Notes under the pieces: model-generated
Told to the model about the DNA's origin: nothing
The model's input: the letters and a program-made list of their open reading frames with translations, nothing else
Database searches by the model: none
Assembly (NCBI GenBank): GCA_902785905.1
Contig: CADAAM010000048.1
Coordinates: 1 to 58,101, forward strand
Source of the DNA: Oscillospiraceae bacterium
GTDB taxonomy: Bacteria > Bacillota > Clostridia > Oscillospirales > Oscillospiraceae
Direction: 5' to 3'
Length of the DNA stretch: 58,101 nt
Shown here: piece after piece, positions 6,214 through 53,595 of the stretch
How the letters are laid out: every line of letters starts with the position of its first letter
How positions within the stretch are numbered: the stretch's first letter is position 1
Made by a program: the position numbers and the translations under genes

Positions 6214-6250
6214 TTTGGGCGGATACGTACCGTGTACGTATCCGCCCAAA
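6214..6250. terminator. Bidirectional hairpin terminator
   Basis: A perfect 17-bp stem (TTTGGGCGGATACGTAC and its complement) with a 3-base loop sits between two convergent genes. The T-run is short in both directions, so termination is likely but not strong on sequence grounds. Confidence 0.65.
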
Positions 6251-6271: not shown

Positions 6272-7465
6272 TCACATGATGGGGATCTTGATCTTGAGGT
6301 CGGTGAGGGGCCAGGAGGAGCAGGCGTGGAACCAGCCCATCTCCTTGTCCATCATGCGGCGTCCGTCGCCCACGGGGGAGACGAAAATCTCGCCCTCGAG
6401 CAGGTGGCTGCGGCAGAAGCCGCACTCGCCGTTGCGGCAGTGGGTGTCGATGGGGATGGCGGCGCGCTCCAGGGCGACGGCCACGGGCTCGCTGGCCTTG
6501 GCGTCGATGACGTCCTCGTGGATGCCGCGCACGACCGTGATCTTGAAGGTCTTGGTCTCGGTGCCCTTGGGGTAACCCGGCAGGGTGGAGACGTCGGCGG
6601 GGTTGTTGACCACGTCATGGCGGAAGCGGCGCACGGGCACGCCCATGTCGTCCAGGGCTTTCTTGACGAAGCGGAACATCGGCAGGGGGCCGCAGAACAT
6701 GTAGGTGCAGTCGGGCGTGGAGTACTTCTCGATGATCTCACGGGTGATAAAGCCCTTCTCCCCTTCCCAGTCGGGCTCATCCGAGAGGACGTGGACGACC
6801 TTCACGTCGGGGCAGTCGGCCTCGATTTTGGCGAGCTCGTCTTTCAGGACGATGTCGTTTGCCTTGACGGAGCCGTAGAGGATGGTGAGCTTGACGCCCT
6901 TCATCTTGCCGTAGGCGATCTCCTTGGCCATGGAGTGAAACGGCGTGATGCCCGAGCCGCCGGCCAGGGCCACGAGCTCTCTGGAATCGCGCAGGGGCTC
7001 CCAGTAGAAGAAGCCGAAGGGCAGCGCGCCCTCGAGAATGTCGCCGATCTTCACGTTCTCAAAGAGATAATCGGGGACGAGGTAGGGCACATTGCGGCGG
7101 ACGGTGATCTCGAAGAAGGGATTCTCCCCTCTCGCCTCGAAGGGGGCGGAGGAGATGGTGTAGGGCCTCGAGAGCAGGCTGTCGCCGATCTTGAGACGGA
7201 AGTTCACATACTGACCGCTCTGAAACGGGGGGATGTGCCCGTCAGCGGACTCAAAACGGAAGACGCGGGAGGAGAGGGACGCCTCGCGGATGCTCACGAC
7301 CTTGAAGAGCATATGCTCGGGGTGCAGGAGATCGGCAAGCTCGCGGATGGGGTCCTTGGGATCGGGGATGGGAGAGCCCTTGGCGAAGTTCTCCTCACGG
7401 AGCTTGACGACGCGGGATGCGCCGCCTACGTCCTGCAGAAAGCCTTTGACCTTGATGCTGCTCAT
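6272..7465 (-). CDS. Flavin/2Fe-2S NAD(P)H oxidoreductase (ferredoxin reductase-type electron donor)
   Basis: A 397-residue electron-transfer protein with three parts. An N-terminal extension (1-50) is followed by an FNR-type FAD domain (about 50-160, with RPYTISS) and an NAD(P)-binding domain (GGSGITPFH near 168, YMFCGPLPMF near 270). A C-terminal plant-type [2Fe-2S] ferredoxin domain has CRNGECGFC near 343 and the fourth Cys near 381. This layout is that of class IA/phenol-hydroxylase-type reductases, which pass electrons from NAD(P)H through FAD and the iron-sulfur centre to a partner enzyme. Its start codon overlaps the stop of the CrtI-like gene (ATGA), so the two are translationally coupled. 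I infer that it supplies electrons to one or both upstream flavoproteins. Confidence 0.88.
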   Translation of the reverse strand: MSSIKVKGFLQDVGGASRVVKLREENFAKGSPIPDPKDPIRELADLLHPEHMLFKVVSIREASLSSRVFRFESADGHIPPFQSGQYVNFRLKIGDSLLSRPYTISSAPFEARGENPFFEITVRRNVPYLVPDYLFENVKIGDILEGALPFGFFYWEPLRDSRELVALAGGSGITPFHSMAKEIAYGKMKGVKLTILYGSVKANDIVLKDELAKIEADCPDVKVVHVLSDEPDWEGEKGFITREIIEKYSTPDCTYMFCGPLPMFRFVKKALDDMGVPVRRFRHDVVNNPADVSTLPGYPKGTETKTFKITVVRGIHEDVIDAKASEPVAVALERAAIPIDTHCRNGECGFCRSHLLEGEIFVSPVGDGRRMMDKEMGWFHACSSWPLTDLKIKIPIM

Positions 7466-9015
7466 TTCCTCGCCTCCTTTTTCTTCTCGATGTCTTCCTT
7501 GACAGCCTTGGCCGCGGCGCGGCCGTTGGTGATCTGCGGGCCCATGCCGTCGCCGGACATGCCGTGCGCACCGGCAAACTCAAGGCCCTCGATGAAGTGA
7601 TCCTTCTCCTTCATCTGCAGTCTTGCCACGGCGTGGTCCTCCATGGAGTGGAGGTAGCCGTAGATATTGCCTTTCCATGCGCCCACATAGTGGGAGACGG
7701 TCATGGGCGTGGTGACCTCGATCTCGGTGATGCGCTTGCGGAAGTCTACCTTGGTAATCTTGATGCACTCGTCGATCATCTCGGAGGCGAGGCGGCGCTT
7801 GAGGTCGAAGTACTCCTCCTCCTTGACGCCCTCAAAGGGCTTGGAGGGGACGAGAGCCGTGATGGAGAGTTGGGTGTAGCCCTTGGGCAGGCCGGGATTG
7901 GCATAGTTTAAGCAGATGGTGGTGATGTAGTTATAGGGCTCGGTGATATTGGCGTAGTTCTCCCAGATCTTGTTGGTGTCCATGGTGGAGCCGGAGAAGG
8001 TAGAGTAGTCGGTGATGCCGTTTGACTCCGGGCTGCCCTCAATGAGCATGATGACGGACACGGGGACCACGGAGAGCTTGCGGTTATTGATCATGCGGAT
8101 CGCGCCCTCGGGCACCTCGCTCAGCGGCTCGATCATCTGGGAGTAGACGCGGTTGGGATAGGCGCCGGAGATGACGTAGTCGCAGTGGATCTCGTCGCCG
8201 CGGGCGGTGCGGACGCCATAGACCTTGCCGTCGCGGACCAGGATCTTCTCGACCTCCTGATTGAACTCATACTGCGCGCCGTTTTCCTCGCACTTGGTCT
8301 GGAGCTTCAGGCTCATCTCATGGCTGAAGCCGCGGCAGACGTAGGAGCCGGTGAAATAGTCGGCCATCAGGAAGGCGTAGATGGTGAAGGGCAGATCGTC
8401 CATGCGGTTGCCGACGTAGATCCAGTAGGGCGTCAGCATCTCGACGGCTTTCTTCGGCAGATCAAAGGTGTTGATGACCTCGGTCGCGGTGTAGCCCACG
8501 GTCTTGACAAAGTCCGGGTGCTTTAAGAGCATCATGGGCTTGCTCATCTGATGGGTGGAGAGGTAGTTCATGCTGTCGTAGACGCGGCGGCAGAGCAGCA
8601 TCAGCTCGTGCACCTTCTCATAGGTGCCGGGGCAGACCTCGTTGATCTCTCTGGCGACGGTGGTGTAGCTGTCGTCGTAGTCCGGGTGCAGCACCTTGTC
8701 GATGCCGGAATTCGGGAGGGCCACGCGGTAGCACTCGGGCACGGGCAGCCAGTCGATCTTGACGCCCATATCGTCAAAGAACTGGCCGACCTTGAGGCGC
8801 TTGTTCGGCTGGCCGATGGACATCATCTCATGCAGGGTCGCTTCGATCTCGAAGCCGTTGCGCACAAAATCGGTGGCGAGGCCGCCGGGCATGTTGTGCT
8901 TTTCAAGGATCAGGATATCCTTGATGCCCCAGGCCTGCAACTGCAGGCAGGCGGACATGCCGGCCAGCGCGCCGCCGATAATGACGACGTCGTAGTGGTC
9001 TTTGTAGAATTTCAT
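7462..9015 (-). CDS. CrtI/phytoene desaturase-like FAD oxidoreductase (possible saturase)
   Basis: A 517-residue member of the phytoene dehydrogenase/retinol saturase superfamily. The N-terminal dinucleotide-binding motif is VIIGGALAGMSA (residues 11-22) followed by EKHNMPGGLATDF, the usual PGG FAD contact. The C-terminal FAD segment is FAGAHGMSGDGMGPQITNGRAAA. The family includes enzymes that either introduce double bonds or, as in RetSat, reduce one bond of a conjugated polyene. The ATG follows AAGGAAG. It is the middle gene of a leftward three-gene operon between a fatty acid isomerase-like protein and a NAD(P)H/2Fe-2S reductase. I infer reduction of a conjugated fatty acid, but a desaturase or another isomerase remains possible. 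Confidence 0.82.
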   Translation of the reverse strand: MKFYKDHYDVVIIGGALAGMSACLQLQAWGIKDILILEKHNMPGGLATDFVRNGFEIEATLHEMMSIGQPNKRLKVGQFFDDMGVKIDWLPVPECYRVALPNSGIDKVLHPDYDDSYTTVAREINEVCPGTYEKVHELMLLCRRVYDSMNYLSTHQMSKPMMLLKHPDFVKTVGYTATEVINTFDLPKKAVEMLTPYWIYVGNRMDDLPFTIYAFLMADYFTGSYVCRGFSHEMSLKLQTKCEENGAQYEFNQEVEKILVRDGKVYGVRTARGDEIHCDYVISGAYPNRVYSQMIEPLSEVPEGAIRMINNRKLSVVPVSVIMLIEGSPESNGITDYSTFSGSTMDTNKIWENYANITEPYNYITTICLNYANPGLPKGYTQLSITALVPSKPFEGVKEEEYFDLKRRLASEMIDECIKITKVDFRKRITEIEVTTPMTVSHYVGAWKGNIYGYLHSMEDHAVARLQMKEKDHFIEGLEFAGAHGMSGDGMGPQITNGRAAAKAVKEDIEKKKEARK

Positions 9016-9036
9016 ACAAACTTCCTTTCAAGAAAC

Positions 9037-9058
9037 AGGGGGCAGATGCCTGCCCCCT
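9037..9058 (-). other. Intercistronic hairpin in the flavoprotein operon
   Basis: A perfect AGGGGGCAG/CTGCCCCCT stem with a 4-base loop lies in the 55-base gap between the isomerase-like and CrtI-like genes. On the minus strand it is followed only by GTTTCTTG, so it may act as a partial terminator or an mRNA stability element that makes the first gene more abundant. Confidence 0.5.
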
Positions 9059-9070
9059 ATTTTTAGTGTC

Positions 9071-10459
9071 TTAGAAGAATCTCTCCACCAGCTCGCGGGA
9101 GTACTCGGCCGTCTCGTCCATGTCGCCGAAGGCCATGATCTCGCCCGCGTAGTAGGTGTCGTACTTGCCCTGCATGGCCTCGACCTTGTCATACCAGCCG
9201 GCGGCGTAGTCGTCGGAGAAGACATGGGGGAAGTAGTAGACGGACCACTCGTTGACGACGTTGGAGGCGGGGTTGCGCATGATCTTGAGATCGTCCAGCA
9301 CCATGCGCTTGCAGGTGTCGTAGGGGACCTCGGCCATGTTCTTGTGCTTGCGCAGGGCGTAGGTGGTGATGACCTGGTCGACGCTCTGCTTCCAGCGGCG
9401 GTAGTAGACCATCAGGTGGCCCAGCTTCTCGGGCACCATGTTGTCGAAGACATAGTAGGAGATCTCGGGGTGATGCTCGGGCTTGGTCTCCACGGCCAGA
9501 ACGTCGTAGCGCTCGTAGTCGATCTTGGAGAAGAGGGCCTTCTCGTCCTCGCGGGCGTCGAAGTACTCGACCATGCCCTTCTGGCCGTCGGTGCGCTTGT
9601 TGGGGATGTAGAGGGGCGCGGTGACGATGACCTTGTCAAACTCCTCGACCTGGCCGTTGACGGTGACAAAGACCTTGCCGTCCTTGCGCTCGACTTTCTC
9701 GATGGCGGAGTTGAGGCGGGCGGGATTCTTGAGGTGGGCGTTGAGCTGCTCCCAGATGTACTGGGTGCCCTGCTCCCATGTCCAGAGGTTGACCTTGACG
9801 AAGTTCATGCAGGTCTGGAAGTCCAGATATTTCAGCACGTAGGCCGCGGGGATCTCGTCAAAGTAGCCGTAGCCGAAGGAGGTGAAGGGTCCGATCCAGA
9901 TCTTCTGCACCAGCTCGCAGCCGTTCTTCTCGCAGAAATCCTTGAAGGGCATGGCCAGATCCTTGAGGTTGGGGTTCTCGCCCTGGACTCTCTCGCGGCC
10001 CGGAGTCACGGCATAGCCGTCATAACGGCCCTCGGCGACGCCGCGGTGGCCGTTGAGGTCATAGCCCTTGTACTTGGTCTCCAGGAGCTCGCCGAACTTG
10101 GTGAGCTGCTTTTTCATCTTGAGCAGCCAGGGGTTCTTGATGATGTTGCCGAGGGTGCGGGCAAAGGGCTCGATCACGTTGCCCTGGGCGTCCTTGTAGT
10201 TGCGGTTGAGCTTGGGGCCGTCGTGGGTGATGCCGCAGAACTTCTCCACGTCTTCAACAGCGTAGTAGGACGGCACGCCCATGATGGCGCCCATCTCATA
10301 ACGCTTGCCGTTGTAGTGCGGGGACCAGCACTTGCCGCCGACGCGGTCAAGGCGCTCAAAAATCGTATAGTTGTTATACCCCTTCTGCTCGAGGTACATG
10401 CCCGCGGACAGGCCCGCGGGGCCGCCGCCGATGATGCAGATGCGCGTGTTTTTATCCAT
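9071..10459 (-). CDS. Polyunsaturated fatty acid isomerase-like FAD protein (linoleate isomerase family)
   Basis: A 462-residue FAD protein of the amine oxidase/PPOX fold. The Rossmann motif CIIGGGPAGLSAGMYLEQKG (residues 8-27) and the following ERLDRVGGKCWSPHYNGKR...MGAIMGVPSY closely resemble, from memory, the structurally characterised Cutibacterium acnes polyenoic fatty acid isomerase PAI. So do NGCE...PFTSFGYGYFDEIPAAYVLKYLDF, LWTWEQGTQ, PEKLGHLMVYYRRW and the C-terminal YAGEIMAFGDMDE. PAI moves a double bond of linoleate to give trans-10,cis-12 conjugated linoleate without net redox change. An AGGAGG site precedes the ATG. It is the first gene of the operon and has its own promoter (10549-10575). 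Activity on free acids or on acyl-ACP is not determinable here. Confidence 0.85.
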   Translation of the reverse strand: MDKNTRICIIGGGPAGLSAGMYLEQKGYNNYTIFERLDRVGGKCWSPHYNGKRYEMGAIMGVPSYYAVEDVEKFCGITHDGPKLNRNYKDAQGNVIEPFARTLGNIIKNPWLLKMKKQLTKFGELLETKYKGYDLNGHRGVAEGRYDGYAVTPGRERVQGENPNLKDLAMPFKDFCEKNGCELVQKIWIGPFTSFGYGYFDEIPAAYVLKYLDFQTCMNFVKVNLWTWEQGTQYIWEQLNAHLKNPARLNSAIEKVERKDGKVFVTVNGQVEEFDKVIVTAPLYIPNKRTDGQKGMVEYFDAREDEKALFSKIDYERYDVLAVETKPEHHPEISYYVFDNMVPEKLGHLMVYYRRWKQSVDQVITTYALRKHKNMAEVPYDTCKRMVLDDLKIMRNPASNVVNEWSVYYFPHVFSDDYAAGWYDKVEAMQGKYDTYYAGEIMAFGDMDETAEYSRELVERFF

Positions 10460-10548
10460 AGTGAACCTCCTGTAAAAATAGAATAAAAAAGGATATGTTT
10501 TTACACTAAAACTCTATGATAAATATACAACAAAAGCCCCGGTTTTGC

Positions 10549-10575
10549 ATTATACAATTGCCGCAGAAATGTCAA
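10549..10575 (-). promoter_or_regulatory. Promoter of the leftward flavoprotein operon
   Basis: Minus strand: TTGACA (10575-10570) and TATAAT (10554-10549) with a short 15-base spacer (16 if TTTGAC is used as the -35). The perfect -10 lies about 90 bases before the isomerase-like start codon. Confidence 0.6.
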
Positions 10576-10602
10576 ATTTTAATAATGCTCCGGAAAAAGT
10601 CC

Positions 10603-10631
10603 TTTGCATTCTCCCCGCGCTATGTTATAGT
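10603..10631 (+). promoter_or_regulatory. Promoter of the rightward acyl-activation operon
   Basis: TTTGCA (10603-10608), a 17-base spacer and TATAGT (10626-10631), 54 bases before the ligase start. It is divergent from the flavoprotein promoter only about 30 bases away, so one regulator could control both. Confidence 0.55.
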
Positions 10632-10684
10632 ATTGTCAGTTAAATATCGCTTTTCGGCAAATCTTTTGTAAGGGAGGCGAACGC

Positions 10685-12025
10685 TTGCGATTTGAGTCTT
10701 TTTCCCATATGCTCCGCCATTGGGCGGAGGTATCGCCGGAGCATCCGGCGCTGATCCATGACCGGGGCGAGCTGAGCTTTTCAGAACTGCTCACAGCTGT
10801 GGAAAAGCGGGCCGGGGAGCTGCGCGCCGACGGGGGAAGCTGCATCGGTATTCTCGCGGACGGGAGCGCGGCGTGCGTAATTGAAATCTTTGCCGCCACA
10901 CTTGCGGGAATGCAGGTTGTGCTGCTGGATGAAGCGCTGCCGGAGGCCGCGCTCGGCGCCCTGCTGCGCTACACGGACGCGGACAGGCTCTGGGGCGACG
11001 ACGATCTCTGTGAGGAGCTGCGCCCCTTCCTCACGCAGGGCGTACAGGACGGCGCGGGGAAGCTGCTCTTTTTCACCTCCGGCACGACGGAGCGCTCCAA
11101 GGCCGTCGTGCTCACCGATCACAGTCTCTGCCAGAGCGCGTACAACGGCGGGGCCAAGCTGCCGCTGACGCCGGAGGACAGGCTTCTCTGCCTGCTGCCG
11201 CTGGGTCATGTGTTCGGCTTCGTGTGCGGCCTGCTCTGGGGTTTGAGCTGCGGGGCCGCCGTCGCTCTCGGCAGGGGGGCGAGGCACTACGCCGACGACT
11301 GCGCGTTCTTCAAACCCACCGCCGTGTCGGTCGTGCCGCTGCTGCTGGGCTTTCTGCTCCAACACAGGCTGTTAAACCCCGAACTCCGGCTCGTGCTCGT
11401 CGGCGCGGGCGACTGTCCGAGGCCGCTTCTGGACGCGGCGGCCGCCGTGGGCGTGCGCGTGAGCTTCGGCTATGGCCTGACCGAGACGAGCTCCGGCGTC
11501 GCGATCAGCGTAACGGGCGATCCCTTCGCCATGGAGGTCTGCCCGGACGACACCATCACCCTCGCCGAGGACGGCGAAATCCTGATTCAGGCCCCCACCT
11601 GCATGATGCAGGGCTATTACAAGCGCCAGGCGGACACCGAGGCCGTGCTCAAAGACGGCGTACTGTATACCGGGGACCTCGGCCGCTTTGACGAGGACGG
11701 CAGGCTCCACATCACGGGGCGCAAGAAAGACATGCTGGTTCTGCCGGACGGAACCAAGCTCTTCCTGCCAGAGTATGAGGGCGAGATCATGCGCGTTCTC
11801 GGCTACCAGGAGCTGGCCGTCATTCTCAAAGGCGGCAAGCCCATCCTTGTCTTCTCCGGCGAGGGGGACGCGAAGGAGATCGAAAAAAGCCTCCGCCCGC
11901 TCATGGCGGAAAAACCGCGCGGGCAGCAGCTCAGCGGCGTCATTGTCACGGACCGCCCGCTGCCGAGAACAGCCACCGGAAAAATCAAACGTTGGGAATT
12001 ACAAAACGAAATGGAGACATTATGA
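10685..12025 (+). CDS. AMP-dependent acyl-CoA/acyl-ACP synthetase-like ligase
   Basis: A 446-residue ANL-superfamily enzyme that should activate a carboxylic acid as acyl-adenylate. Visible motifs are the P-loop FFTSGTTERSKAVVLTD (near 135-150), the adenine-binding FGYGLTETSSGVA (near 262), YTGDLGRFDEDGRLHITGRKKDM (near 325-345), and the C-terminal catalytic Lys in PRTATGKIKRWEL. At about 450 residues it is shorter than acyl-CoA synthetases and similar to stand-alone acyl-ACP ligases. The start is TTG at 10685, chosen because GGGAGG lies 7 bases upstream. The stop overlaps the next gene's ATG. The adjacent carrier protein suggests that it loads an acyl group onto that ACP. Confidence 0.85.
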   Translation: MRFESFSHMLRHWAEVSPEHPALIHDRGELSFSELLTAVEKRAGELRADGGSCIGILADGSAACVIEIFAATLAGMQVVLLDEALPEAALGALLRYTDADRLWGDDDLCEELRPFLTQGVQDGAGKLLFFTSGTTERSKAVVLTDHSLCQSAYNGGAKLPLTPEDRLLCLLPLGHVFGFVCGLLWGLSCGAAVALGRGARHYADDCAFFKPTAVSVVPLLLGFLLQHRLLNPELRLVLVGAGDCPRPLLDAAAAVGVRVSFGYGLTETSSGVAISVTGDPFAMEVCPDDTITLAEDGEILIQAPTCMMQGYYKRQADTEAVLKDGVLYTGDLGRFDEDGRLHITGRKKDMLVLPDGTKLFLPEYEGEIMRVLGYQELAVILKGGKPILVFSGEGDAKEIEKSLRPLMAEKPRGQQLSGVIVTDRPLPRTATGKIKRWELQNEMETL

Positions 12026-12273
12026 CCAGAGAAGAAGTACTGAACAAGATCCGCCAGGTTATCCGGGACTGCGTGCCCGAGATGGTAGGCGAAGAGCTGA
12101 ACGAAGACACCGTCATCAACACCGAGACCGCCATCGACTCCATGGGCTTCATCCTCGTCATCTGCAAGCTGGAGGCCCTGTTCAACGTCCGTATTCCCGA
12201 GCGGCAGTGGAAGAAGCTGTCCACCATGGGCGACGTGGCCGACGCCATCATCAAGTATCTGCCGAAGTCATGA
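12022..12273 (+). CDS. Acyl carrier protein
   Basis: An 83-residue acidic carrier protein. The phosphopantetheine attachment Ser lies in the motif TAIDSMGFILVICKLE (Ser near residue 40), and the surrounding helices fit the ACP fold. The start ATG overlaps the ligase stop as ATGA, and its own TGA overlaps the thioesterase ATG, so all three genes are translationally coupled. A housekeeping fatty-acid ACP would be expected beside fab genes; here it is dedicated to an isolated ligase and thioesterase, which suggests a specialised acyl pathway. Confidence 0.88.
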   Translation: MTREEVLNKIRQVIRDCVPEMVGEELNEDTVINTETAIDSMGFILVICKLEALFNVRIPERQWKKLSTMGDVADAIIKYLPKS

Positions 12274-12980
12274 GCGTGTTTTCAACGCAGCTTCGCCTGC
12301 GCAACAAGGACGTGAATCTCTACCGGCGTCTGCGCACCTCCAGGCTCTTTGAGCTGATGCAGGAGGCGTCGATCCGGCACACCGAGGAGCTGGGCATGGG
12401 CCGCGAGATGACCCTTGACCGGGGGCTTCTCTGGATGGTCACGCTCCAGCGGGCAGAGATCGCGCGTATGCCGGAGTATGACGAGCTCATCACGCTCGAG
12501 TCCTGGGCCGGCGAGACCATGCACCTGCTCTTCCCCCGCTACTACCGCGTATTGGACGAGAAGGGCGCGGTTCTGCTCTCGGCGAGCGCGCTCTGGGCTC
12601 TGGTGGATCAGGAGACGCGGCGCATGGTCTTCCCCGACCGCTACGGCGTGGTGATTGAGGGCGAGGTCACGGGGCATGAGATTGCCCTGCCCTCCCCGCC
12701 CAGGCGCGCCCAGGGAGAGGCGGTCGCGCGCTTCAAGGTTCCGTTCAGCTATGTGGATCTCAACGGCCATATGAACAACACCCGCTACTTCGACCTGGCG
12801 GAGGATTTGATCCCCGCCGCGTCGGAGGGGCGAAGCCTGCGCGAAATCGCCGTGGAATACGCAAACGAAGTCCGCCTCGGTGAGGAGATCAGCGTCTCGA
12901 TTGAAGAGACCGGGGCCGGGTACAGCCTCAGCGGCGACACGGAGAAAAAGATTTTCCGGATGCTGATACGGTACGCGTAA
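12270..12980 (+). CDS. Acyl-ACP thioesterase-like (FatA/FatB type, double hotdog) protein
   Basis: A 236-residue protein with two hotdog halves typical of acyl-ACP thioesterases. The first half contains RLRNKDVNLYRRLRTSRLFELMQEAS and the helix that follows. The second contains YVDLNGHMNNTRYFDLAEDL, the FatA/BaiA-like motif with the catalytic Asn/His pair (D-x-N-x-H-x-N-N-x-x-Y). The ATG at 12270 overlaps the ACP stop codon; the longer in-frame extension upstream is spurious. It would hydrolyse acyl-ACP to release free fatty acid. With the ligase and ACP it could make a closed cycle: activate, modify, release. Which of the divergent flavoproteins acts on the bound chain is inference. Confidence 0.85.
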   Translation: MSVFSTQLRLRNKDVNLYRRLRTSRLFELMQEASIRHTEELGMGREMTLDRGLLWMVTLQRAEIARMPEYDELITLESWAGETMHLLFPRYYRVLDEKGAVLLSASALWALVDQETRRMVFPDRYGVVIEGEVTGHEIALPSPPRRAQGEAVARFKVPFSYVDLNGHMNNTRYFDLAEDLIPAASEGRSLREIAVEYANEVRLGEEISVSIEETGAGYSLSGDTEKKIFRMLIRYA

Positions 12981-13442: not shown

Positions 13443-13503
13443 GGGATAACCCACCTCATTTCTTTTTTAAGAAGCATTATTCTTATGTTTGGGAGGCTTC
13501 TTT

Positions 13504-14358
13504 TTGGACAGAGAAGAAATATCTAGAGAAATCCAAATGTCCTATGAGGCATTATGTACATACTTGTTAAGCAAGTATGGCGGAGCAGTCGTTGATTTTT
13601 TTTATACGCCTGAATGTAAATCAAAAAACAAAAAAGTATCGCGCACAGGCGAAGGATTGTTTTGCCACCATATTGATGAGGACAAAGGCATTTGCTTAAG
13701 TGACAGAGCATTCGCAAAAACACAGCCATTTGAATGGCAAAAGAAAGAGCGTCTGGTTTATTGCAATATACTTGAACATCTGATTTTGCACCTAAAAATT
13801 AAAGCGTTGAATCCAAAAGAACAGTTAAAAGCACCTATTGAAATCCAGCGTTCCATTCCTTCTGGCATTTCTTTACTATGTCGCGATATTAATGATATGT
13901 ACATGAATGATGGAACTTCCCATGTATGGCGAAAGAGATGTTTTGAAGAAATTCGTGATAATTATTATGATTACATCAATTTGTTAAAAGCTCTAACATT
14001 GTACATTGACAAACATTATACTGGGAAGCGGGATGATTCGCCGTCTTTAGTTCCTGGATCCATAGTACACTTTGCGGGTTCTGATCATGAAATAATACTG
14101 CTTAACGAGGCAAAAGATAAATTCCTATTGAAATTGCCAAACGGAGAAAATAGATTTTTCTCAACATCCTTGGCAACTCAACAATTATCATATTTGGAGT
14201 CTTTTGATCGTATGGTCCGGATGTTGTCACACGGTTATAACTCGTTCTATGAAAAAATTCTTTCTGATATTACAAACGAAAGCGATAACATTATAGCTGC
14301 TGAGTATTGTAATGCACTTGATATCGATGATTATGGTTTTGCGCTTCCTCCATATTAA
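13504..14358 (+). CDS. HNH-endonuclease-like protein in an AT-rich island
   Basis: A 284-residue protein with codon and base use clearly more AT-rich than all neighbours, a sign of recent transfer. I place the start at TTG 13504, because GGGAGG lies 7 bases upstream; a TTG five codons earlier lies before the ribosome site. Residues 54-57 (CHHI) followed by LVYCNILEHLILH (84-96, with E91, H92 and H96) match the spacing of HNH/ββα-metal nucleases (HHI ... NLV-x-L-x-x-EH-x-x-x-H). The rest, including C-terminal ENRFFSTSLATQQLSYLESFDRM, is not recognised. It sits immediately after the REP-like element. Nuclease function is an inference from the motif; the protein could be a domesticated or unrelated family. 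Confidence 0.6.
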   Translation: MDREEISREIQMSYEALCTYLLSKYGGAVVDFFYTPECKSKNKKVSRTGEGLFCHHIDEDKGICLSDRAFAKTQPFEWQKKERLVYCNILEHLILHLKIKALNPKEQLKAPIEIQRSIPSGISLLCRDINDMYMNDGTSHVWRKRCFEEIRDNYYDYINLLKALTLYIDKHYTGKRDDSPSLVPGSIVHFAGSDHEIILLNEAKDKFLLKLPNGENRFFSTSLATQQLSYLESFDRMVRMLSHGYNSFYEKILSDITNESDNIIAAEYCNALDIDDYGFALPPY

Positions 14359-14443: not shown

Positions 14444-17116
14444 ATGGCTCATCTGAGACCGAAAATCGTTAAACTCTGCCACGTCATCGGCGGCATTTCC
14501 GGCGTCGTCAACAAGATTGACGAGAACGCCCCCGAGTACTACAGTCTCGCGGACATCGTCAGCGACGACGAGGCCGACATCGCCATCGCCGCCGGTCTGC
14601 GCAAGGAGCGCACCGCAGATTGGCTCGCCAAAAAGGTCGGCAAAACGGTGGAGGAGATCATGCCCTCCCTCGACAATCTCGTCTACTACGGCGTGTTCCG
14701 CCGCACCTACAGCGAGAAGGACGGGCAGGATGTCTACTACATGCAGATTTTTGCCCCCGGCATCCTTGAGATGATGGTCAACAACGTTCCCCTCATGACC
14801 GCCCACCCGGAGATCGGCCGCGCGTTTGAGGAATATACTCGCCTGCGCATGCAGTCCATGGGCCCCATTCTGCCCGACGGCTACGGCCTGATGCGCGTGG
14901 TGCCGGTGGAGAGCGCCATCAAGGACATTCCCGGCGTCAGCCCCTATGAAAAGCTCAGCTATTACCTCGACAAATACAAGACCTTTTCTCTCTCCCCCTG
15001 CTCCTGCCGCGCCTCCCGTACCAGCATCAATGACGGTTGCGGCCACCTCGACCAGGAGATGTGCATCCAGATGGGCAAGGGCGCGGAGCACTATATCCGC
15101 TCCGGCCGCGCCAGAGAGATCACAAAGGAGGAGGCGCTTGAGGTCATCAGGCGCGCAGAGGAAAACGGCCTCATGCACGACATGCCGAACATTGAGGAGG
15201 CGGGCGAATCCGCCGCTATCTGCAACTGCTGCGCCTGCGCCTGCTTCGGCCTGCGCGCGGGGCTGATGTTCGGCGCGCGCGACGCCATCCGCTCCAACTT
15301 CGTCGCCGTGGTGGACGAGGCCAAGTGCGTCGCCTGCGCCCAGTGCGTGGAAAACTGTCCGGCCAACGCCCTCAAGCTCGGCCAGAAGCTTTGCTCGAGC
15401 GAGGAGATCCCCGTGCCGGAGTATGCCTCCATCGTCAACACCTTCAACTTTAAAAACGCCTTCAACCCCGACTACCGCGAGAACCGCGAGGACGTGCTGC
15501 CCTCCGGCACCGCGCCGTGCAAGACCGCGTGTCCCGCGCACATCGCCGTACAGGGATACTTAAAGCTCGCAGCCCAGGGCCGCTACACCGACGCGCTGGA
15601 GCTCATCAAGAAGGAGAACCCCTTCCCCGCCGTCTGCGGCCGTATCTGCAACAAGCGCTGCGAGCAGGCCTGCACCCGCGGCAGTGTGGACGAGGCCGTC
15701 GCCATTGACGAGGTCAAGCGCTTCATTGCCGACCACGACCTCCACGAGGAGACCCGCTTCGTGCCCAAGATGCTCAACCAGATCGGCAGGCCATACGAAG
15801 AGAAGATCGCCGTCATCGGCGCGGGCCCCGCTGGTATGAGCTGCGCCTACTACCTCGCCAACAAGGGCTATCCCGTCACGGTCTTCGATAAAAACCCCGT
15901 CCCCGGCGGTATGCTGGTGCTCGGCATCCCGAACTTCCGTCTGGAGAAGGACGTGCTCAACGCCGAGATCGACATTCTGCGCGAGATGGGCGTGGAGTTT
16001 AAGTGCGGCGTCGAGGTCGGCAGGGACATCACCATCCAGCAGCTCCGCGACGAGGGCTACAAGGGCTTCTACCTCGCCATCGGCGCGCAGAAGTCCTCCC
16101 CGCTCAAGATCAAGGGTGAGGAGCTGGACGGCGTCTGGGGCGGCGTGGAGTTCCTGCGCGAAGTGAACCTCGGCGCGCGGCCCGACATCGGCAAAAAATG
16201 CGCGGTCATCGGCGGCGGCAACGTCGCCATGGACGTCGCCGTCAGACTCGGCGCGGACGAGACGACGATCATCTACCGCCGCTCCGAGGCCGAGCTGCCC
16301 GCCGACCCCGACGAAGTCAAAGAGGCCATGAAGGAGGGCGTCAAGTTCCGCTATCTCTGCGCCCCGGCCGAGATTACCGGCAAGGACGGCAAGGTCAGGC
16401 AGCTCATGGTCGAGGTCATGGAGCTCGGCGCGCCCGACGAGAAGGGCCGCCGCAAGCCCGTCGGCACCGGCAAATATGAGTTTATCGACGTGGACAGCGT
16501 TATCTCCGCCATCGGCCAGCAGGTCGACTGGGGCGGACTGGACGTCGGCGCGCTCCAAAAGCGCAAGAACGGCACCTGTGAAGCAAACGAGCTGACCTAT
16601 CAGTCCGGAGAGCCCGACATCTTTGTCGGCGGTGACGTGTACACCGGGCCGAAGTTTGCCATCGACGCGATTGCAGCCGGCAAGGAGGCCGCCATCTCCC
16701 TGCACCGCTATGTGCATCCCGGCCAGACCCTCACCATGGGCCGCGACCGCCGCATCTACCGCGAGCTCGACAAGACCCACGCCCTGGTCTCCCTCGGCGG
16801 CTTCGATACCGAACGCCGCCAGGAGCCCGGCTACAACGAAGCCAAGGCAAAGAGCTTCTCCGACGCCCGCGTCACCTTCACCGAGGAGCAGGTGCGCAGG
16901 GAGTGCGCGCGCTGTCTCGGCTGCGGCGCGACCAAGGTGGACGAATATCTCTGCATCGGCTGCGGCCTGTGCACCACCAAGTGCAAGTTCGACGCCATCA
17001 AGCTCAAGAAGGTCCGCGACTGGCATGCCGGCGCCTTCGAGACCATGCCCATTAAGGTTGCCGAGGGTCTTGTCAAGCGCACCGGCAAGATCATCCGCAA
17101 CAACCTCAAAAAGTAA
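14444..17116 (+). CDS. Multidomain iron-sulfur flavoprotein oxidoreductase (GltD-like core, extra N-terminal and 4Fe-4S domains)
   Basis: An 890-residue cytoplasmic redox protein. Residues 1-115 are helical, winged-helix-like. Residues 180-310 are Cys-rich (SPCSCRAS, CNCCACACF) and end in a 4Fe-4S motif, CVACAQCVENCP. The GltD-type 4Fe-4S domain follows (CKTACPAHIAVQGYL ... CGRICNKRCEQACTRG). The FAD motif is VIGAGPAGMSCAYYLANKG (near 453) and the NAD(P) motif VIGGGNVAMD (near 588). The C-terminus carries a cysteine cluster, CARCLGCG ... CIGCGLCTTKCKFDAI. The core matches glutamate synthase beta chain/NfnB-like NAD(P)H dehydrogenases, but the fused N-terminal module is unusual. AAAGGAG precedes the ATG. 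It overlaps hypA by one base (TAATG), suggesting a link to hydrogenase or ferredoxin metabolism. Its electron acceptor is unknown. Confidence 0.85.
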   Translation: MAHLRPKIVKLCHVIGGISGVVNKIDENAPEYYSLADIVSDDEADIAIAAGLRKERTADWLAKKVGKTVEEIMPSLDNLVYYGVFRRTYSEKDGQDVYYMQIFAPGILEMMVNNVPLMTAHPEIGRAFEEYTRLRMQSMGPILPDGYGLMRVVPVESAIKDIPGVSPYEKLSYYLDKYKTFSLSPCSCRASRTSINDGCGHLDQEMCIQMGKGAEHYIRSGRAREITKEEALEVIRRAEENGLMHDMPNIEEAGESAAICNCCACACFGLRAGLMFGARDAIRSNFVAVVDEAKCVACAQCVENCPANALKLGQKLCSSEEIPVPEYASIVNTFNFKNAFNPDYRENREDVLPSGTAPCKTACPAHIAVQGYLKLAAQGRYTDALELIKKENPFPAVCGRICNKRCEQACTRGSVDEAVAIDEVKRFIADHDLHEETRFVPKMLNQIGRPYEEKIAVIGAGPAGMSCAYYLANKGYPVTVFDKNPVPGGMLVLGIPNFRLEKDVLNAEIDILREMGVEFKCGVEVGRDITIQQLRDEGYKGFYLAIGAQKSSPLKIKGEELDGVWGGVEFLREVNLGARPDIGKKCAVIGGGNVAMDVAVRLGADETTIIYRRSEAELPADPDEVKEAMKEGVKFRYLCAPAEITGKDGKVRQLMVEVMELGAPDEKGRRKPVGTGKYEFIDVDSVISAIGQQVDWGGLDVGALQKRKNGTCEANELTYQSGEPDIFVGGDVYTGPKFAIDAIAAGKEAAISLHRYVHPGQTLTMGRDRRIYRELDKTHALVSLGGFDTERRQEPGYNEAKAKSFSDARVTFTEEQVRRECARCLGCGATKVDEYLCIGCGLCTTKCKFDAIKLKKVRDWHAGAFETMPIKVAEGLVKRTGKIIRNNLKK

Positions 17117-17457
17117 TGCACGAGCTCGGGATCTGCGACGCCATCCTCAAAACCGTGGACGGCATCGCCAGGGAGGAACAGCTGACCGTGGTCCACAAGG
17201 TCACGCTCGAGGTGGGCATGCTCTCGGGCGTGGTGCCTCGCTTTCTCACCGACTGCTGGCAGGCGGTCATCGACGGCACGCCCTATCAGGATACGGAGCT
17301 CTGCATCGAGACCGTCAACGGCCTTGCGCGCTGCGAGGATTGCGGGCATGAGTTCAGTGCCGATCTGGAAAAGCTCTGGTGCCCCAAATGTGCGGGCCGC
17401 CGGCTCACCCCGCTGACGGGCACGGATTTGACAATCAAGGAAATCGAGGCGGATTAA
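17116..17457 (+). CDS. hypA: Hydrogenase/urease nickel incorporation protein HypA
   Basis: A 113-residue metallochaperone. The N-terminal MHELGI supplies the nickel ligand His2 and the neighbouring Glu. A zinc ribbon is formed by CEDC (near residues 74-77) and CPKC (near 90-93). HypA delivers nickel to [NiFe] hydrogenase precursors or urease. No [NiFe] hydrogenase, urease or other hyp gene is visible in this window; the only hydrogenase here is of the [FeFe] type at 47.8-49.2 kb. The gene overlaps the end of the 890-residue oxidoreductase by one base and is followed immediately by the NimA-like gene. Confidence 0.92.
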   Translation: MHELGICDAILKTVDGIAREEQLTVVHKVTLEVGMLSGVVPRFLTDCWQAVIDGTPYQDTELCIETVNGLARCEDCGHEFSADLEKLWCPKCAGRRLTPLTGTDLTIKEIEAD

Positions 17458-30922: not shown

Positions 30923-32326
30923 TTATGCGTTCTTCTCCTTGATATACTTGTCGATGGAGACGGCGCCCGCCTTGCCTGCGCCCATGGCGAGGATGACGGT
31001 GGCCGCGCCGGTCACGGCATCGCCGCCGGCGAAGACGCCCTCGCGCGCGGTCACGCCGCCCTCGTCGGCCTCAATGCCGCCTTTGCGGGTGAAGGTCAGG
31101 CCGCCGGTGGTGTTGCGGATCAGGGGGTTCGGGCTGGTGCCGATGGCGATGATGACGGTGTCCACGTCCAGGACCCATTCGCTGCCCGGCACGGGGACGG
31201 GAGAGCGGCGGCCCTTCGCGTCGGGCTCGCCCAGCTCCTGACGCAGCAGCTCAATGCCGGTGACGAAGCCGTCCTCGCCCGCGAGGATGCGGGTCGGGTT
31301 ATTGAGCAGGTGGAACTCGATGCCCTCGGCCTCGGCATGCTCGACCTCTTCGAGACGGGCGGGCAGCTCGTCGCGGCCGCGGCGGTAGCAGATATAGACG
31401 TGCTCCGCGCCCAGACGCTTGGCGACGCGCGCGGCGTCCATGGCGACGTTGCCCGCGCCGACGACGGCCACGCGGTGGAAGTGCTTGATGGGGGTATCGT
31501 AGTCGTCGCGGTAGGCCTTCATGAGGTTGACGCGGGTCAGCAGCTCATTGGCGGTGTAGACGCCCAGCAGGTTCTCGCCGGGGATGTGCAGGAACTGGGG
31601 CAGGCCCGCGCCGGAGCCGATGAATACGGCCTCGAAGCCGTCCTCGAACAGCTCGTCCACGGTCTCGGACTTGCCGATAATGGCGTTGTTGACGATCTTG
31701 ACGCCCATGGCCTTGAGGTTGTCGATCTCCTTGGCGACGATCTCCTTCGGGAGCCTAAACTGCGGGATGCCGTAGACCAGCACGCCGCCGGACTTGTGCA
31801 GGGCCTCGAAGATCGTGACGTCGTAGCCCATCTTGCGCAGGTCGCCCGCGCAGGTCAGACCCGCAGGGCCGGAGCCGACAACGGCGATACGGTGGCCGTT
31901 GGAGGCGGGAACCTCAACCTCGACCTTCTCGAGCTTGGCCTGCTCGGCCATGTGCCAGTCGGCCACGAAGCGCTCGAGTCTGCCGATGCCGACGGACTCG
32001 CCCTTGACGCCGCGAACGCACTTGGACTCGCACTGCTTCTCCTGGGGGCAGACGCGGCCGCAGACGGCGGGCAGGGAGTTTGTGGAGGTGATGATGTCAT
32101 AGGCGGCCTCGAACTCGCCCTCGGCGACCTTGGCGATAAACTCGGGGATGCGCACGGCCACGGGACATCCGGTGCGGCAGGCGGGGTTCTTGCAGTTGAG
32201 GCAGCGCTTGGCCTCGTCGATGGCCATCTCGGGGGTATAGCCCAGGGCCACCTCGTCGAAGTTGCCGGCGCGGACGATGGGGTCCTGCTCGGGCATTTCG
32301 TTCTTGGTCAGTCTCATATTAGCCAT
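30923..32326 (-). CDS. nfnB: NfnB/GltD-like NADPH oxidoreductase, large subunit of the ferredoxin:NADP transhydrogenase
   Basis: A 467-residue flavoprotein of the glutamate synthase small-chain family. An N-terminal 4Fe-4S domain (CLNCKNPACRTGCPVAVRIPEFI and CGRVCPQEKQCESKCVRG) is followed by the FAD motif VVGSGPAGLTCAGDLRKMGYD (near 150) and the NADPH motif VVGAGNVAMDAARVAKRLG (near 286), then AGGDAVTGAATVILAMGAGK. It overlaps the small subunit gene by 8 bases. The pair matches NfnAB, which couples NADH and reduced ferredoxin oxidation to NADP reduction by electron bifurcation/confurcation in clostridia. A stand-alone glutamate synthase small subunit is less likely because no large subunit is present. 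Confidence 0.9.
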   Translation of the reverse strand: MANMRLTKNEMPEQDPIVRAGNFDEVALGYTPEMAIDEAKRCLNCKNPACRTGCPVAVRIPEFIAKVAEGEFEAAYDIITSTNSLPAVCGRVCPQEKQCESKCVRGVKGESVGIGRLERFVADWHMAEQAKLEKVEVEVPASNGHRIAVVGSGPAGLTCAGDLRKMGYDVTIFEALHKSGGVLVYGIPQFRLPKEIVAKEIDNLKAMGVKIVNNAIIGKSETVDELFEDGFEAVFIGSGAGLPQFLHIPGENLLGVYTANELLTRVNLMKAYRDDYDTPIKHFHRVAVVGAGNVAMDAARVAKRLGAEHVYICYRRGRDELPARLEEVEHAEAEGIEFHLLNNPTRILAGEDGFVTGIELLRQELGEPDAKGRRSPVPVPGSEWVLDVDTVIIAIGTSPNPLIRNTTGGLTFTRKGGIEADEGGVTAREGVFAGGDAVTGAATVILAMGAGKAGAVSIDKYIKEKNA

Positions 32327-33086
32327 TTCTCTTTCCTCCCGTCATCTTGCAGATGTGCTGGGCAGCACGGTCCTGCTCGTCCTTGTAGAAGGCGGCGCGC
32401 TTGAGCAGGGAGTCGAAATCGACCTGGTGCGCGTCAAAATCGGGGCCGTCGACACAGGCGAACTTGGTCTCGCCGCCGACGATGACGCGGCAGCCGCCGC
32501 ACATGCCGGTGCCGTCGACCATGATGGGGTCGAGGGAGATGATGGTGCTGATGCCGTAGGGGCGGGTCACGTCGGCCAGGAACTTCATCATCTCGCCGTA
32601 GGTGCCGTCGTCGGTGCACATGATGAGCTTGTCGGAGGCCTCCTTGAGCTCGTCCTTGAGGATGACGATGTCGGCGGAGCGGAAGCCGCCGATGAAGGTG
32701 ACCTCGATGCCACGCTTGTGCATCTCCTTGGCGATGGGGTACGCGATGGCGCAGCCGACGCCGCCGCCGACCACACAGACCTTCTTCAGGCCTTCCATCT
32801 CGGTGGCTCTGCCGAGGGGGCCGACGAAGTCGGAGATATAGTCGCCCTGCTCGACGGTGTGGAGCATCTTGGTGGTGCGGCCCGCGGCCTGCACCATGAC
32901 GGAGACAGTGCCCTTCTCGCGGTCCCAGTCCGCGACGGAGACGGGGACTCGCTCGCCCTGCTCGTCCAGGCGGAAGATCACGAACTGACCGGCCTGTGCA
33001 TGTCTGGCGGCCAGCGGCGCCTCGATCTCAAACAGGCAGATGGTCTTGGCGTCGTTGAGGAAACGCTTGGTTACGACCTTGTACAT
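32319..33086 (-). CDS. nfnA: NfnA-like FAD/NAD-binding, 2Fe-2S small subunit
   Basis: A 255-residue protein related to the dihydroorotate dehydrogenase electron-transfer subunit. An N-terminal FNR-like FAD domain with FRLDEQGERVPVSVAD is followed by an NAD-binding motif (VCVVGGGVGCAIAYPIAKEM, near 103-122). The C-terminal [2Fe-2S] ligand set has Asp in place of one Cys (VDGTGMCGGCRV...FACVDGPDFDAH), as in the structurally known NfnA, where one Asp and three Cys hold the cluster. That feature, together with the NfnB partner immediately downstream, favours NfnA over a PyrK role. It is the first gene of the operon. Confidence 0.9.
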   Translation of the reverse strand: MYKVVTKRFLNDAKTICLFEIEAPLAARHAQAGQFVIFRLDEQGERVPVSVADWDREKGTVSVMVQAAGRTTKMLHTVEQGDYISDFVGPLGRATEMEGLKKVCVVGGGVGCAIAYPIAKEMHKRGIEVTFIGGFRSADIVILKDELKEASDKLIMCTDDGTYGEMMKFLADVTRPYGISTIISLDPIMVDGTGMCGGCRVIVGGETKFACVDGPDFDAHQVDFDSLLKRAAFYKDEQDRAAQHICKMTGGKRNG

Positions 33087-49568: not shown

Positions 49569-50403
49569 TCAGTATTCAAACTGTCCCTCGTACACGACGC
49601 TCGCCCCGCCGGTGAGAAGGACGCGCGCGTCGGTGTAGTTGACGGTGAGCTCGCCGCCGAGAACGCTGACCTTCACGTCGCTGCCCTTGTCGCACAGGCC
49701 GTTTTCGCACGCCGCCACGACCGCCGCGCACGCGCCGGTGCCGCAGGCGAGGGTCTCGCCGCTGCCGCGCTCCCAGACCCGCATGCGTAAGGTGAAACTC
49801 AGCGTTGACCCGCTCGGGGAACATGGCGTCGTGCTCAAAGAGCGGGCCGACCGTCTCGAGATCAAGGCCGTCGATCGCGTCGCAGAACACCACGCAGTGG
49901 GGGTTGCCGACGTTCACGCAGGTGACGCGGTAATCCGCCCCGCCGATGGTGACGGGCGCGTCGACGATGATCTCCCCGCCGTAGACCGCCGGGATCTCCG
50001 CCGCCTTGAGCGAGGCCTTCCCCATATCTACCTCCACGGAGCTGACCCTCTCGTCACGCAGGAAGAGGCGCAGGGACTTGACGCCGCTGCCGGTCTCGAC
50101 GGTCATGCGCTCCCTGGACACGATACCCCGGTCGTAGACATATTTTGCGACGCAGCGGATGTTGTTGCCCGCCATTTTGCCCTCGCTGCCGTCGCGGTTG
50201 AAGCTGCGCATCCTGACGTCGGCGACCTTGGATTTTTCGATCAGCACAATGCCGTCGCTTCCGACGCCGGTGTGGGGCCTGCACAGGTTTACGCACAGAG
50301 ACTCCGGGCAGGTGATCGCGCCGTCAAAGTTTTCAATGAAGATATAGTCGTTGCCGCAGTCCTGCATCTTGGTGAAGCGGATGAGCTGCCGCCGGGTGCG
50401 CAT
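49569..50403 (-). pseudogene. dapF: DapF domain of the fusion, frameshifted and lacking a catalytic Cys
   Basis: From Met1065 the domain follows DapF: FTKMQDCGND, HTGVGSDGIVLI, then RDGSEGKMAGNNIRC where the family has MCGNG-x-RC, so the first catalytic Cys is Ala. After CVNVGNPHCVVFCDAIDGLD and FPERVNAEF the frame loses homology. TLRMRVWERGSGETLACGTGACAAVV, with the second catalytic Cys, continues one frame over. About seven residues expected between AEF and LRMRV are also missing, consistent with a short deletion of about 20 bases not divisible by three. Confidence 0.8.
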
Positions 50404-53400: not shown

Positions 53401-53595
53401 ATAAATGGCATCGGCGAGGTGCTTGTCGGTCATAATGGTGGCCGGGTTGGAGTTGACCAGCACGGTCCGAATGCCCTCCTGCCGCAGCACGCGGCAGGCC
53501 TGGGCCCCGGCGTAGTCAAATTCCGCCGCCTGGCCGATCACAATGGGGCCGGAGCCGATGACCAGCACCTTGCGGATATTCAGATTTTTAGGCAT
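49569..53595 (-). CDS. carB: Carbamoyl phosphate synthase large subunit fused to diaminopimelate epimerase
   Basis: Residues 1-1064 are a full CarB. Two ATP-grasp halves start KVLVIGSGPIVIGQAAEFDYAG and VMVLGSGPIRIGQGIEFDYSS, and the C-terminal allosteric MGS-like domain (about 930-1055) ends DTANALAEIIESR. CarB makes carbamoyl phosphate for arginine and pyrimidines with CarA ammonia transfer. With no stop codon the frame runs on through MRTRRQLIRFTKMQDCGNDYIF, the start of a DapF domain, so the protein is a CarB-DapF fusion of about 1340 residues. The DapF part is frameshifted near 49795, and the homologous end lies in another frame finishing at 49569. The carB start overlaps the carA stop by 8 bases. 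Confidence 0.9.

What the first reader, a model, noticed from the sequence alone, without database searches (positions are those of the whole stretch)
6272..10459. Three-gene flavoprotein operon built around a PAI-like polyunsaturated fatty acid isomerase
The first gene closely matches, by remembered motifs along its whole length, the linoleate isomerase PAI. It is followed by a CrtI/RetSat-like FAD enzyme and a translationally coupled NAD(P)H-FAD-2Fe-2S reductase. The order suggests isomerisation to a conjugated diene, then saturation with electrons from the reductase, a compact route for biohydrogenation. I know of no described system with exactly this set.
Basis: partly seen in the sequence, partly recalled or inferred. 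Interest (0 to 1): 0.87.

Follow-up and report, generated by a model that had tools for sequence, protein, structure and literature searches.

The report
Gene set for hydrogenating rumen fats
Uncultured gut bacteria, mostly from ruminants, carry a conserved six-gene block built around a known fatty-acid isomerase and a dedicated reductase pair; it probably isomerises and then reduces polyunsaturated plant fat, a rumen step whose bacteria and reductase genes are still poorly known.

Summary
The three genes are real and lie where stated. The first is 52% identical to the Cutibacterium acnes isomerase PAI (PDB 2b9w), with three active-site residues kept in 82 of 82 relatives. The second has a CrtI-type fold but scores below the curated family cut-offs. 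The third is an FAD-NAD-2Fe-2S reductase overlapping the second by 4 nt. Among 80 loci CRT is found in 79 and RED in 72 (all misses at contig ends), the ligase in 76. A distant member (PAI 53%) has all six. CRT and RED distances correlate at 0.96, PAI and CRT at only about 0.4: an exchangeable cassette. Nearby lies a gene with the architecture of IsrA, a proposed conjugated-diene reductase, and HypA. Best reading: linoleate is isomerised to a conjugated diene, then reduced with NAD(P)H, perhaps on the carrier protein. PAI homologues in rumen genomes are already published; I saw no account of this gene set. No enzyme activity is shown.

The parts
9071..10459 (-). PAI: FAD polyunsaturated fatty acid isomerase homologue, 462 aa
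   Evidence: 2b9w E 7.7e-133; 51.8% identity; R86, F195, F220 invariant in 82 of 82 rows, one contig counted twice
9037..9058 (-). hairpin in the PAI-CRT gap; possible attenuator or mRNA stabiliser
   Evidence: Watson-Crick stem of 8 bp or more in 40 of 67 gaps of at least 30 nt, 0.5 expected from simple shuffles; with G-U 56 of 67 against 10.5 expected and 8 of 66 in PAI coding controls
7462..9015 (-). CRT: CrtI-fold FAD oxidoreductase, 517 aa, proposed C=C reductase
   Evidence: crtI_fam 92.7 bits, below cut-off; AF2 pLDDT 82.8; Foldseek 4rep TMq 0.77
6272..7465 (-). RED: FAD-NAD(P)H-2Fe-2S reductase, 397 aa
   Evidence: Pfam domains; C343, C348, C351, C382 invariant in all RED rows aligned; 4-nt overlap with CRT
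6214..6250 (.). 17-pair terminator-like stem between RED and the convergent ICMT-like gene
   Evidence: terminator-like sites are not enriched in the region overall (15 found, 11.2 expected, sd 3.8)
10460..10684 (.). divergent intergenic region
   Evidence: TATAAT-type 8-mer in 37 of 69 gaps against at most 7 in one shuffle set; the rule-based scan lists two promoter-like sites towards AMPL and none towards PAI
10685..12025 (+). AMPL: AMP-binding acyl ligase, TTG start, 446 aa
   Evidence: PF00501 6e-39; found in 76 of 80 loci, one of them about 8 kb away
12022..12273 (+). ACP: acyl carrier protein, 83 aa
   Evidence: PF00550 21.5 bits, cut-off 20.8; DSM site invariant in 74 of 74 rows; 4-nt overlap with AMPL
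12270..12980 (+). TE: acyl-ACP thioesterase, 236 aa
   Evidence: PF01643 1.8e-20 and PF20791 1.2e-11; D163, N165, H167, E200 invariant
14444..17116 (+). IsrA-like Fe-S flavoprotein, 890 aa; a variable neighbour, not part of the six-gene core
   Evidence: domains; CxC at 186/188 and 260/262; a homologue lies within 1.2 kb after RED in 20 of 28 testable type-B loci, 17 of these within 300 bp
17116..17457 (+). HypA-like metallochaperone next to the IsrA-like gene
   Evidence: PF01155 1.9e-31

Best explanation
The locus encodes a fatty-acid biohydrogenation pathway of uncultured, mostly ruminant-gut, Clostridia. PAI uses FAD to move a double bond of a free polyunsaturated acid (linoleate, perhaps linolenate), giving a conjugated diene, most likely trans-10,cis-12 as in C. 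acnes. CRT, fed by electrons that RED takes from NAD(P)H, then reduces that diene to a monoene (trans-10 18:1) or further. AMPL, ACP and TE form a load-and-release cycle: the ligase charges the acid onto the dedicated ACP and the thioesterase frees the product, so the reduction may take place on an ACP thioester. The purpose would be detoxification of unsaturated fat and disposal of electrons. Shown here: the genes, their homologies, conserved catalytic residues, linkage and co-evolution. Inferred: substrate, regiochemistry, direction of CRT, and the ACP tether.
For: PAI: 52% identity to a solved isomerase with gating and pocket residues kept; its C. acnes relative makes trans-10,cis-12 CLA (PMC2885616, abstract in listing). 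Two distant homologues at 26-28% lose R86 and one of the two Phe each, on a rough alignment. Linkage: CRT 79, RED 72, AMPL 76, ACP 71, TE 71, ICMT-like control 0 of 80. The same six genes lie in a genome of another family at PAI 53%, CRT 56%, RED 55%, AMPL 46%, ACP 49%, TE 44%. Among 37 congeneric genomes, all 22 with AMPL also have a PAI match. Reductive direction: RED lies directly downstream of 36 of 39 CRT paralogues and 20 of 24 CRT orthologue matches, and CRT and RED distances correlate at 0.96. Some paralogous pairs lie near genes whose tested representatives are a long-chain acyl-CoA ligase, enoyl-CoA hydratase, 3-hydroxyacyl-CoA dehydrogenase, thiolase or FadR-like GntR regulator. Habitat: 33 of 80 record titles name a ruminant. 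Physiology: a sheep-rumen anaerobe called R. albus made trans-10 18:1 from 18:2 (Kemp et al., as told in PMC7339423, section 11 part 1 read).
Against: No activity data. CRT is closest in fold to a carotenoid desaturase, so an oxidative or isomerising role is not excluded. The IsrA-like neighbour is itself a candidate diene reductase. A free-acid isomerase and an ACP cycle fit together only if loading follows isomerisation. L051, with 8 kb of flank, has PAI-CRT-RED but no AMPL-ACP-TE, and in L010 AMPL is about 8 kb away. Some CRT-RED pairs sit by aconitase X genes, which does not suggest fat. Loci were the best 80 of 246 by PAI similarity. The R. albus strain tested in PMC7339423 itself did not convert 18:2. 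PAI matches are interrupted in G292 (one stop), G306, G313 and G321 (two pieces), by decay or assembly error.
Confidence: 0.55

Rival explanations
1. The IsrA-like protein with its HypA partner reduces the conjugated diene made by PAI, and CRT-RED does another step, such as reducing the remaining isolated double bond.
For: Same architecture as IsrA, proposed to hydrogenate conjugated C=C bonds (PMC10134865 passages): 4Fe-4S near 295, DPD domain II, FAD/NAD domain, C-terminal 4Fe-4S, two CxC motifs 74 residues apart as reported for IsrA. A homologue lies within 1.2 kb after RED in 20 of 28 testable type-B loci (17 within 300 bp), and beyond TE in L004, L014 and L047.
Against: Within 1.2 kb after RED in only 3 of 30 testable type-A loci, the window's own type. 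Homologues occur in 37 of 37 congeneric genomes, 14 of them without a PAI match, so they are not tied to PAI as CRT-RED is.
Confidence: 0.2
2. A biosynthetic cluster: PAI, CRT and RED modify an acyl chain held on the dedicated ACP to make a special lipid, which TE releases; dietary fat is not the substrate.
For: A ligase, a dedicated ACP and an acyl-ACP thioesterase suit a tailoring cassette; AMPL and TE diverge faster than PAI.
Against: None of the six core genes is a chain-building enzyme by Pfam; wider flanks were not scanned in full. PAI keeps the residue recalled to meet a free carboxylate.
Confidence: 0.12
3. CRT is a desaturase or cis-trans isomerase rather than a reductase, with RED keeping its flavin reduced, as carotenoid isomerases need reduced FAD (recalled).
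For: Best fold match is a carotenoid desaturase; TIGR02730 carotenoid isomerase scores 80.3 bits.
Against: Both family scores lie far below the curated cut-offs; a desaturase would not need an NAD(P)H-driven electron input.
Confidence: 0.1

Closest known systems
PAI of Cutibacterium (Propionibacterium) acnes, PDB 2b9w
   Same: 52% identity over 421 residues; R88, F168 and F193 equivalents kept
   Different: Here accompanied by CRT-RED and faced by AMPL-ACP-TE; the C. acnes gene context was not seen here
PAI homologues in rumen MAGs (PMC10019597, 2023; passages and section 19 read)
   Same: Same isomerase family, in Lachnospiraceae, Oscillospiraceae and unclassified bacteria: 7 of 228 MAGs
   Different: The passages read treat the isomerase gene; the word reductase occurs 0 times in the main text
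IsrA / isr operon of Acetobacterium wieringae (PMC10134865; passages read)
   Same: The neighbour at 14444-17116 has IsrA-type architecture, CxC motifs and an adjacent HypA
   Different: Not part of the six-gene core; substrate here presumably a fatty acid, not isoprene
CLA reductase of Butyrivibrio fibrisolvens (Fukuda 2007, cited in PMC2654759 and PMC4478896; passages read)
   Same: Proposed function: reduction of a conjugated fatty acid made by an isomerase
Lactobacillus CLA-HY/DH/DC/ER pathway (PMC13365329; passages read)
   Same: Saturation of linoleate by gut bacteria
   Different: Begins with a hydratase; the own genome has no PF06100 match
CrtI / CrtD / carotenoid isomerase / RetSat flavoproteins (RetSat from recall only)
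   Same: Fold (4rep TMq 0.77)
   Different: Below curated cut-offs; paired with its own NAD(P)H reductase

Membership tests
PAI polyunsaturated fatty acid isomerase | Full-length homology to 2b9w | tested here: met
   E 7.7e-133, 51.8% identity over 421
PAI polyunsaturated fatty acid isomerase | Gating and pocket residues R88, F193, F168 (roles recalled) | tested here: met
   R86, F220, F195, in 82 of 82 rows
PAI polyunsaturated fatty acid isomerase | Linoleate to trans-10,cis-12 CLA | not testable with these tools
   needs enzyme assay
CrtI phytoene desaturase family / carotenoid isomerase (for CRT) | NCBIfam score above curated cut-off | tested here: not met
   92.7 of 238.1 and 80.3 of 586.9 bits
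CrtI phytoene desaturase family / carotenoid isomerase (for CRT) | CrtI-type fold | tested here: met
   AF2 pLDDT 82.8; 4rep TMq 0.77, 4dgk TMq 0.57
IsrA family (for 14444-17116) | Architecture: N-terminal CxC region, 4Fe-4S, DPD domain II, FAD/NAD, C-terminal 4Fe-4S | tested here: met
   CxC 186/188 and 260/262; six N-terminal Cys invariant in 13 of 13 sequences, C-terminal Fe-S cysteines in 12 of 13
IsrA family (for 14444-17116) | HypA neighbour (73% of 988 homologues within five genes) | tested here: met
   HypA at 17116-17457
IsrA family (for 14444-17116) | Direct sequence comparison with IsrA | not tested
   IsrA sequence was not at hand
Acyl-ACP thioesterase (TE) | PF01643 above cut-off and D-x-N-x-H site (site recalled) | tested here: met
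   73.4 bits, cut-off 23.7; D163, N165, H167 invariant
Acyl carrier protein | Phosphopantetheine serine in DSM | tested here: met
   74 of 74 rows; PF00550 just over cut-off
Lactobacillus CLA-HY pathway | Oleate hydratase PF06100 in the genome | tested here: not met
   none in G000, a genome 84.77% complete
Butyrivibrio CLA reductase | Sequence homology to CLA-R | not tested
   sequence not available

The most novel reading that the evidence does not exclude
A complete, previously undescribed biohydrogenation pathway of uncultured rumen Clostridia in which the fatty acid is isomerised free, then loaded on a dedicated acyl carrier protein and reduced there by a new two-component CrtI-fold reductase, and released by a thioesterase. 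It would name the long-sought trans-10 biohydrogenating bacteria and a gene family of CLA reductases tied to them, with exchangeable reductase cassettes setting the product.
Probability: 0.33. Interest if true: 0.87.

Novelty: new variant of a known kind. Interest (0 to 1): 0.72.

Why it matters
[quoted passage not shown] In that study C. acnes was the only producer among 28 species and was judged unlikely to be the only or predominant one in vivo (abstract). This locus supplies concrete genes, a marker set (PAI with CRT-RED) and a testable enzyme order. It also points to a CRT-RED module that recurs in other gene settings, so the benefit could extend beyond one pathway.

Tried and rejected
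AlphaFold model of PAI: mean pLDDT 60.4 from a shallow alignment, not used; identity to the crystal structure was used instead. PAI in viral contigs: 43 pattern matches, no relatives. Plasmids: two distant homologues (27.5% Photobacterium, 25.6% Nostoc), judged outside PAI because on a three-row alignment R86 is lost in both, F220 in the first and F195 in the second. Shared operator in the divergent gap: k-mers gave promoter-like words only; the palindrome count was swamped by a run of N in L094 and is no evidence either way. Lactobacillus-type hydratase route: not supported in the own genome. ICMT-like gene as part of the operon: rejected, 0 of 80. PAI merely slow-evolving: not a full account, because PAI is 84% where CRT is 55% (L058) yet 53% where CRT is 56% (L094). 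On quick trees the A/B cassette label needs 3 changes on PAI and 6 on AMPL-ACP-TE against 1 on its own tree. Wider sampling at E 1e-40: PAI in 2 of 291 genomes of the class and 1 of 398 of the phylum, own genome included, and 1 of 13 in the family of G251, which is G251 itself; the tool scores few candidates per genome there, so these are lower bounds.
Full report
What is there. Three genes on the - strand run PAI (9071-10459), CRT (7462-9015), RED (6272-7465). PAI matches 2b9w at E 7.7e-133 and is 51.8% identical over 421 aligned residues. The equivalents of R88, F168 and F193 are R86, F195 and F220, kept in 82 of 82 rows (81 distinct contigs), and 154 columns are invariant across window, 2b9w and all 82. 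The roles of these residues are recalled from the 2006 structure paper, which was not held. CRT has a CrtI-type fold but scores below the curated cut-offs of the families shown. RED has the order FAD, NAD, 2Fe-2S, with four invariant cysteines.

The real unit. A scan of one genome per species found 246 loci encoding relatives of PAI, of which the best 80 (83-93% identity) were returned and examined. CRT is next to PAI in 79 of 80; the miss, L083, ends at PAI. RED is in 72 of 80; the other eight contigs end within PAI or CRT. On the other side, transcribed away, lie AMPL (76 of 80), ACP (71) and TE (71). Misses are contig ends except L051, which lacks the arm within 8 kb, and L010, where AMPL is about 8 kb away and the rest lies beyond the stretch held. 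The ICMT-like gene that follows RED in the window is in 0 of 80, a built-in control. In G251, from another family of the class, PAI is 53% identical and all six genes are present in the same arrangement. CRT-RED spacing is -4 to +4 in 70 of 70 loci (-4 in 54); AMPL-ACP is -4 in 44 of 71 and ACP-TE -4 in 52 of 72. Start codons there were picked by script to match the aligned start.

Genus survey. Among 60 relatives (37 of the own genus, own genome included), a PAI match is in 23, AMPL in 22, CRT-like in 29, RED-like in 29. All 22 with AMPL have PAI. The one without AMPL, G306, has PAI in two overlapping frames with stops and only a 47-residue CRT remnant. This is suggestive only, since G313 and G321 also have PAI in two pieces and G292 has one stop, with AMPL kept. 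Five PAI genomes lack a CRT orthologue match (G303, G306, G307, G309, G325); in all of these but G306 the PAI match itself is cut short. CRT orthologues without a PAI match occur in G310 and G312, both truncated at the CRT start, and RED fragments at 91-94% in G295 and G318; these genomes are 57-79% complete. PAI is rare beyond the genus: 2 of 291 genomes in the class and 1 of 398 in the phylum, own genome included, as lower bounds.

CRT and RED are a module. Besides the PAI-linked copies, these genomes hold 39 CRT paralogues (27-37% identity, one in another genus); 36 have RED directly downstream. Of the three others, one starts near a contig start, one has a RED piece further off, and one (G300:C116) is unexplained. 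Some lie near a long-chain acyl-CoA ligase, enoyl-CoA hydratase, 3-hydroxyacyl-CoA dehydrogenase, thiolase or a GntR regulator of FadR type; others near aconitase X genes, so the module may not serve fat alone (one representative of each neighbour cluster was tested). In 61 sequences with all six genes (60 loci plus the window), CRT and RED distances correlate at 0.96, PAI with CRT at 0.34 (0.41 without L094), AMPL with TE at 0.83. At a 70% cut CRT falls into types A (30), B (28), C (2) and one lone (L094), while PAI forms one cluster plus L094. On quick trees without the duplicate L097, the A/B label needs 1 change on CRT-RED, 3 on PAI and 6 on AMPL-ACP-TE; well-supported branches alone force at least 2 changes on PAI and 4 on the other arm. 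I read this as exchange of the reductase pair as a unit under one isomerase.

The second arm. AMPL is an AMP-binding ligase, closest to MenE-type and acyl-CoA ligase models but below their cut-offs. ACP carries DSM in 74 of 74 rows. TE is an acyl-ACP thioesterase with D163, N165, H167 and E200 invariant. A ligase and a thioesterase on one ACP would be a futile cycle unless something happens to the chain in between, hence the ACP-tether idea. It is inference.

The neighbour at 14444-17116. This 890-aa protein has an N-terminal region with CxC at 186/188 and 260/262, 4Fe-4S near 295, DPD domain II, FAD/NAD and a C-terminal 4Fe-4S. The paper on IsrA, a putative isoprene reductase, gives CxC at 180/182 and 254/256 and the same domains, and HypA within five genes of 73% of 988 homologues (PMC10134865, passages). 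HypA follows here. Homologues lie within 1.2 kb after RED in 20 of 28 testable type-B loci (17 within 300 bp; most 40-46% identical to the window's) but 3 of 30 type-A loci, and within 2 kb after TE in 3 of 30 type-A and 7 of 29 type-B loci. All 37 congeneric genomes have homologues, so the link to PAI is recurrent but not exclusive.

Expression signals. The PAI-CRT gap often holds a hairpin: a Watson-Crick stem of at least 8 bp in 40 of 67 gaps of 30 nt or more (the window included, shorter gaps dropped) against 0.5 expected from simple shuffles. Allowing G-U, it is 56 against 10.5 expected, and 8 of 66 in PAI coding controls. The arms differ in sequence (48 distinct of 56), so structure rather than sequence recurs; 31 of 56 are followed by at least four T in eight bases. 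It may lower CRT-RED relative to PAI. A 17-pair stem at 6214-6250 may end the operon, though terminator-like sites are not enriched in the region. A TATAAT-type word recurs in the divergent gap, but the rule-based scan found no PAI-directed promoter there, and two directed to AMPL.

Host and habitat. Of 80 record titles, 33 name a ruminant, 37 carry RUG or RUI codes (rumen genome sets by recall) and 10 name no host. The association could partly reflect the genus rather than the genes.

What is known. [quoted passage not shown] The trans-10 formers of the rumen are described as not unambiguously identified; the same text reports a rumen anaerobe called R. albus that made trans-10 18:1, while the strain tested there did not convert 18:2 (PMC7339423). 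No listing or passage that I saw in ten paper searches of an open-licence library describes the PAI-CRT-RED set or the six genes; subscription papers were mostly out of reach.

Verdict. The finding is real and larger than reported. The isomerase assignment is strong, the reductase assignment plausible, and the ACP tether a guess worth testing.

Noticed in passing
window 49576-53595: One 1339-aa ORF joins the large subunit of carbamoyl-phosphate synthase to a diaminopimelate epimerase domain; an unusual fusion.
   Followed up: no
window 13489-14358: ORF of 289 aa without Pfam match, AT-rich by eye, between TE and the IsrA-like gene; in L004 these two are 126 bp apart, so it looks inserted.
   Followed up: partly
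L096 (G306:C13) 7917-9501: PAI in two overlapping frames with stops, CRT reduced to a 47-residue remnant, no AMPL match in that genome: a decaying copy, or assembly error.
   Followed up: partly
L112, L116, L119: CRT-RED paralogues beside genes clustering with aconitase X; in L119 large and swivel subunits were confirmed by Pfam, hinting at non-fatty-acid substrates.
   Followed up: partly
L114:10694-12457 and L124:4913-6697: RED homologues of 587 and 594 aa, about 190 aa longer than usual.
   Followed up: no
L134 (Photobacterium plasmid) 6448-9233: A distant PAI-like gene (27.5%) follows a distant CRT-like gene (21%); possibly a chance pairing within one fold family.
   Followed up: no
L130 (G302), L131 (G296): Oleate hydratase PF06100 over cut-off in 2 of 25 congeneric genomes searched, both without a PAI match; perhaps alternative strategies.
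   Followed up: no
window 30923-33086: Pair resembling NfnB and NfnA (Fer4_20 with Pyr_redox_2; DHODB Fe-S domain).
   Followed up: no
L018: The set appears on a 4.3-kb contig labelled Coriobacteriales, with CRT only 51% identical but PAI 87%: transfer or binning error.
   Followed up: no
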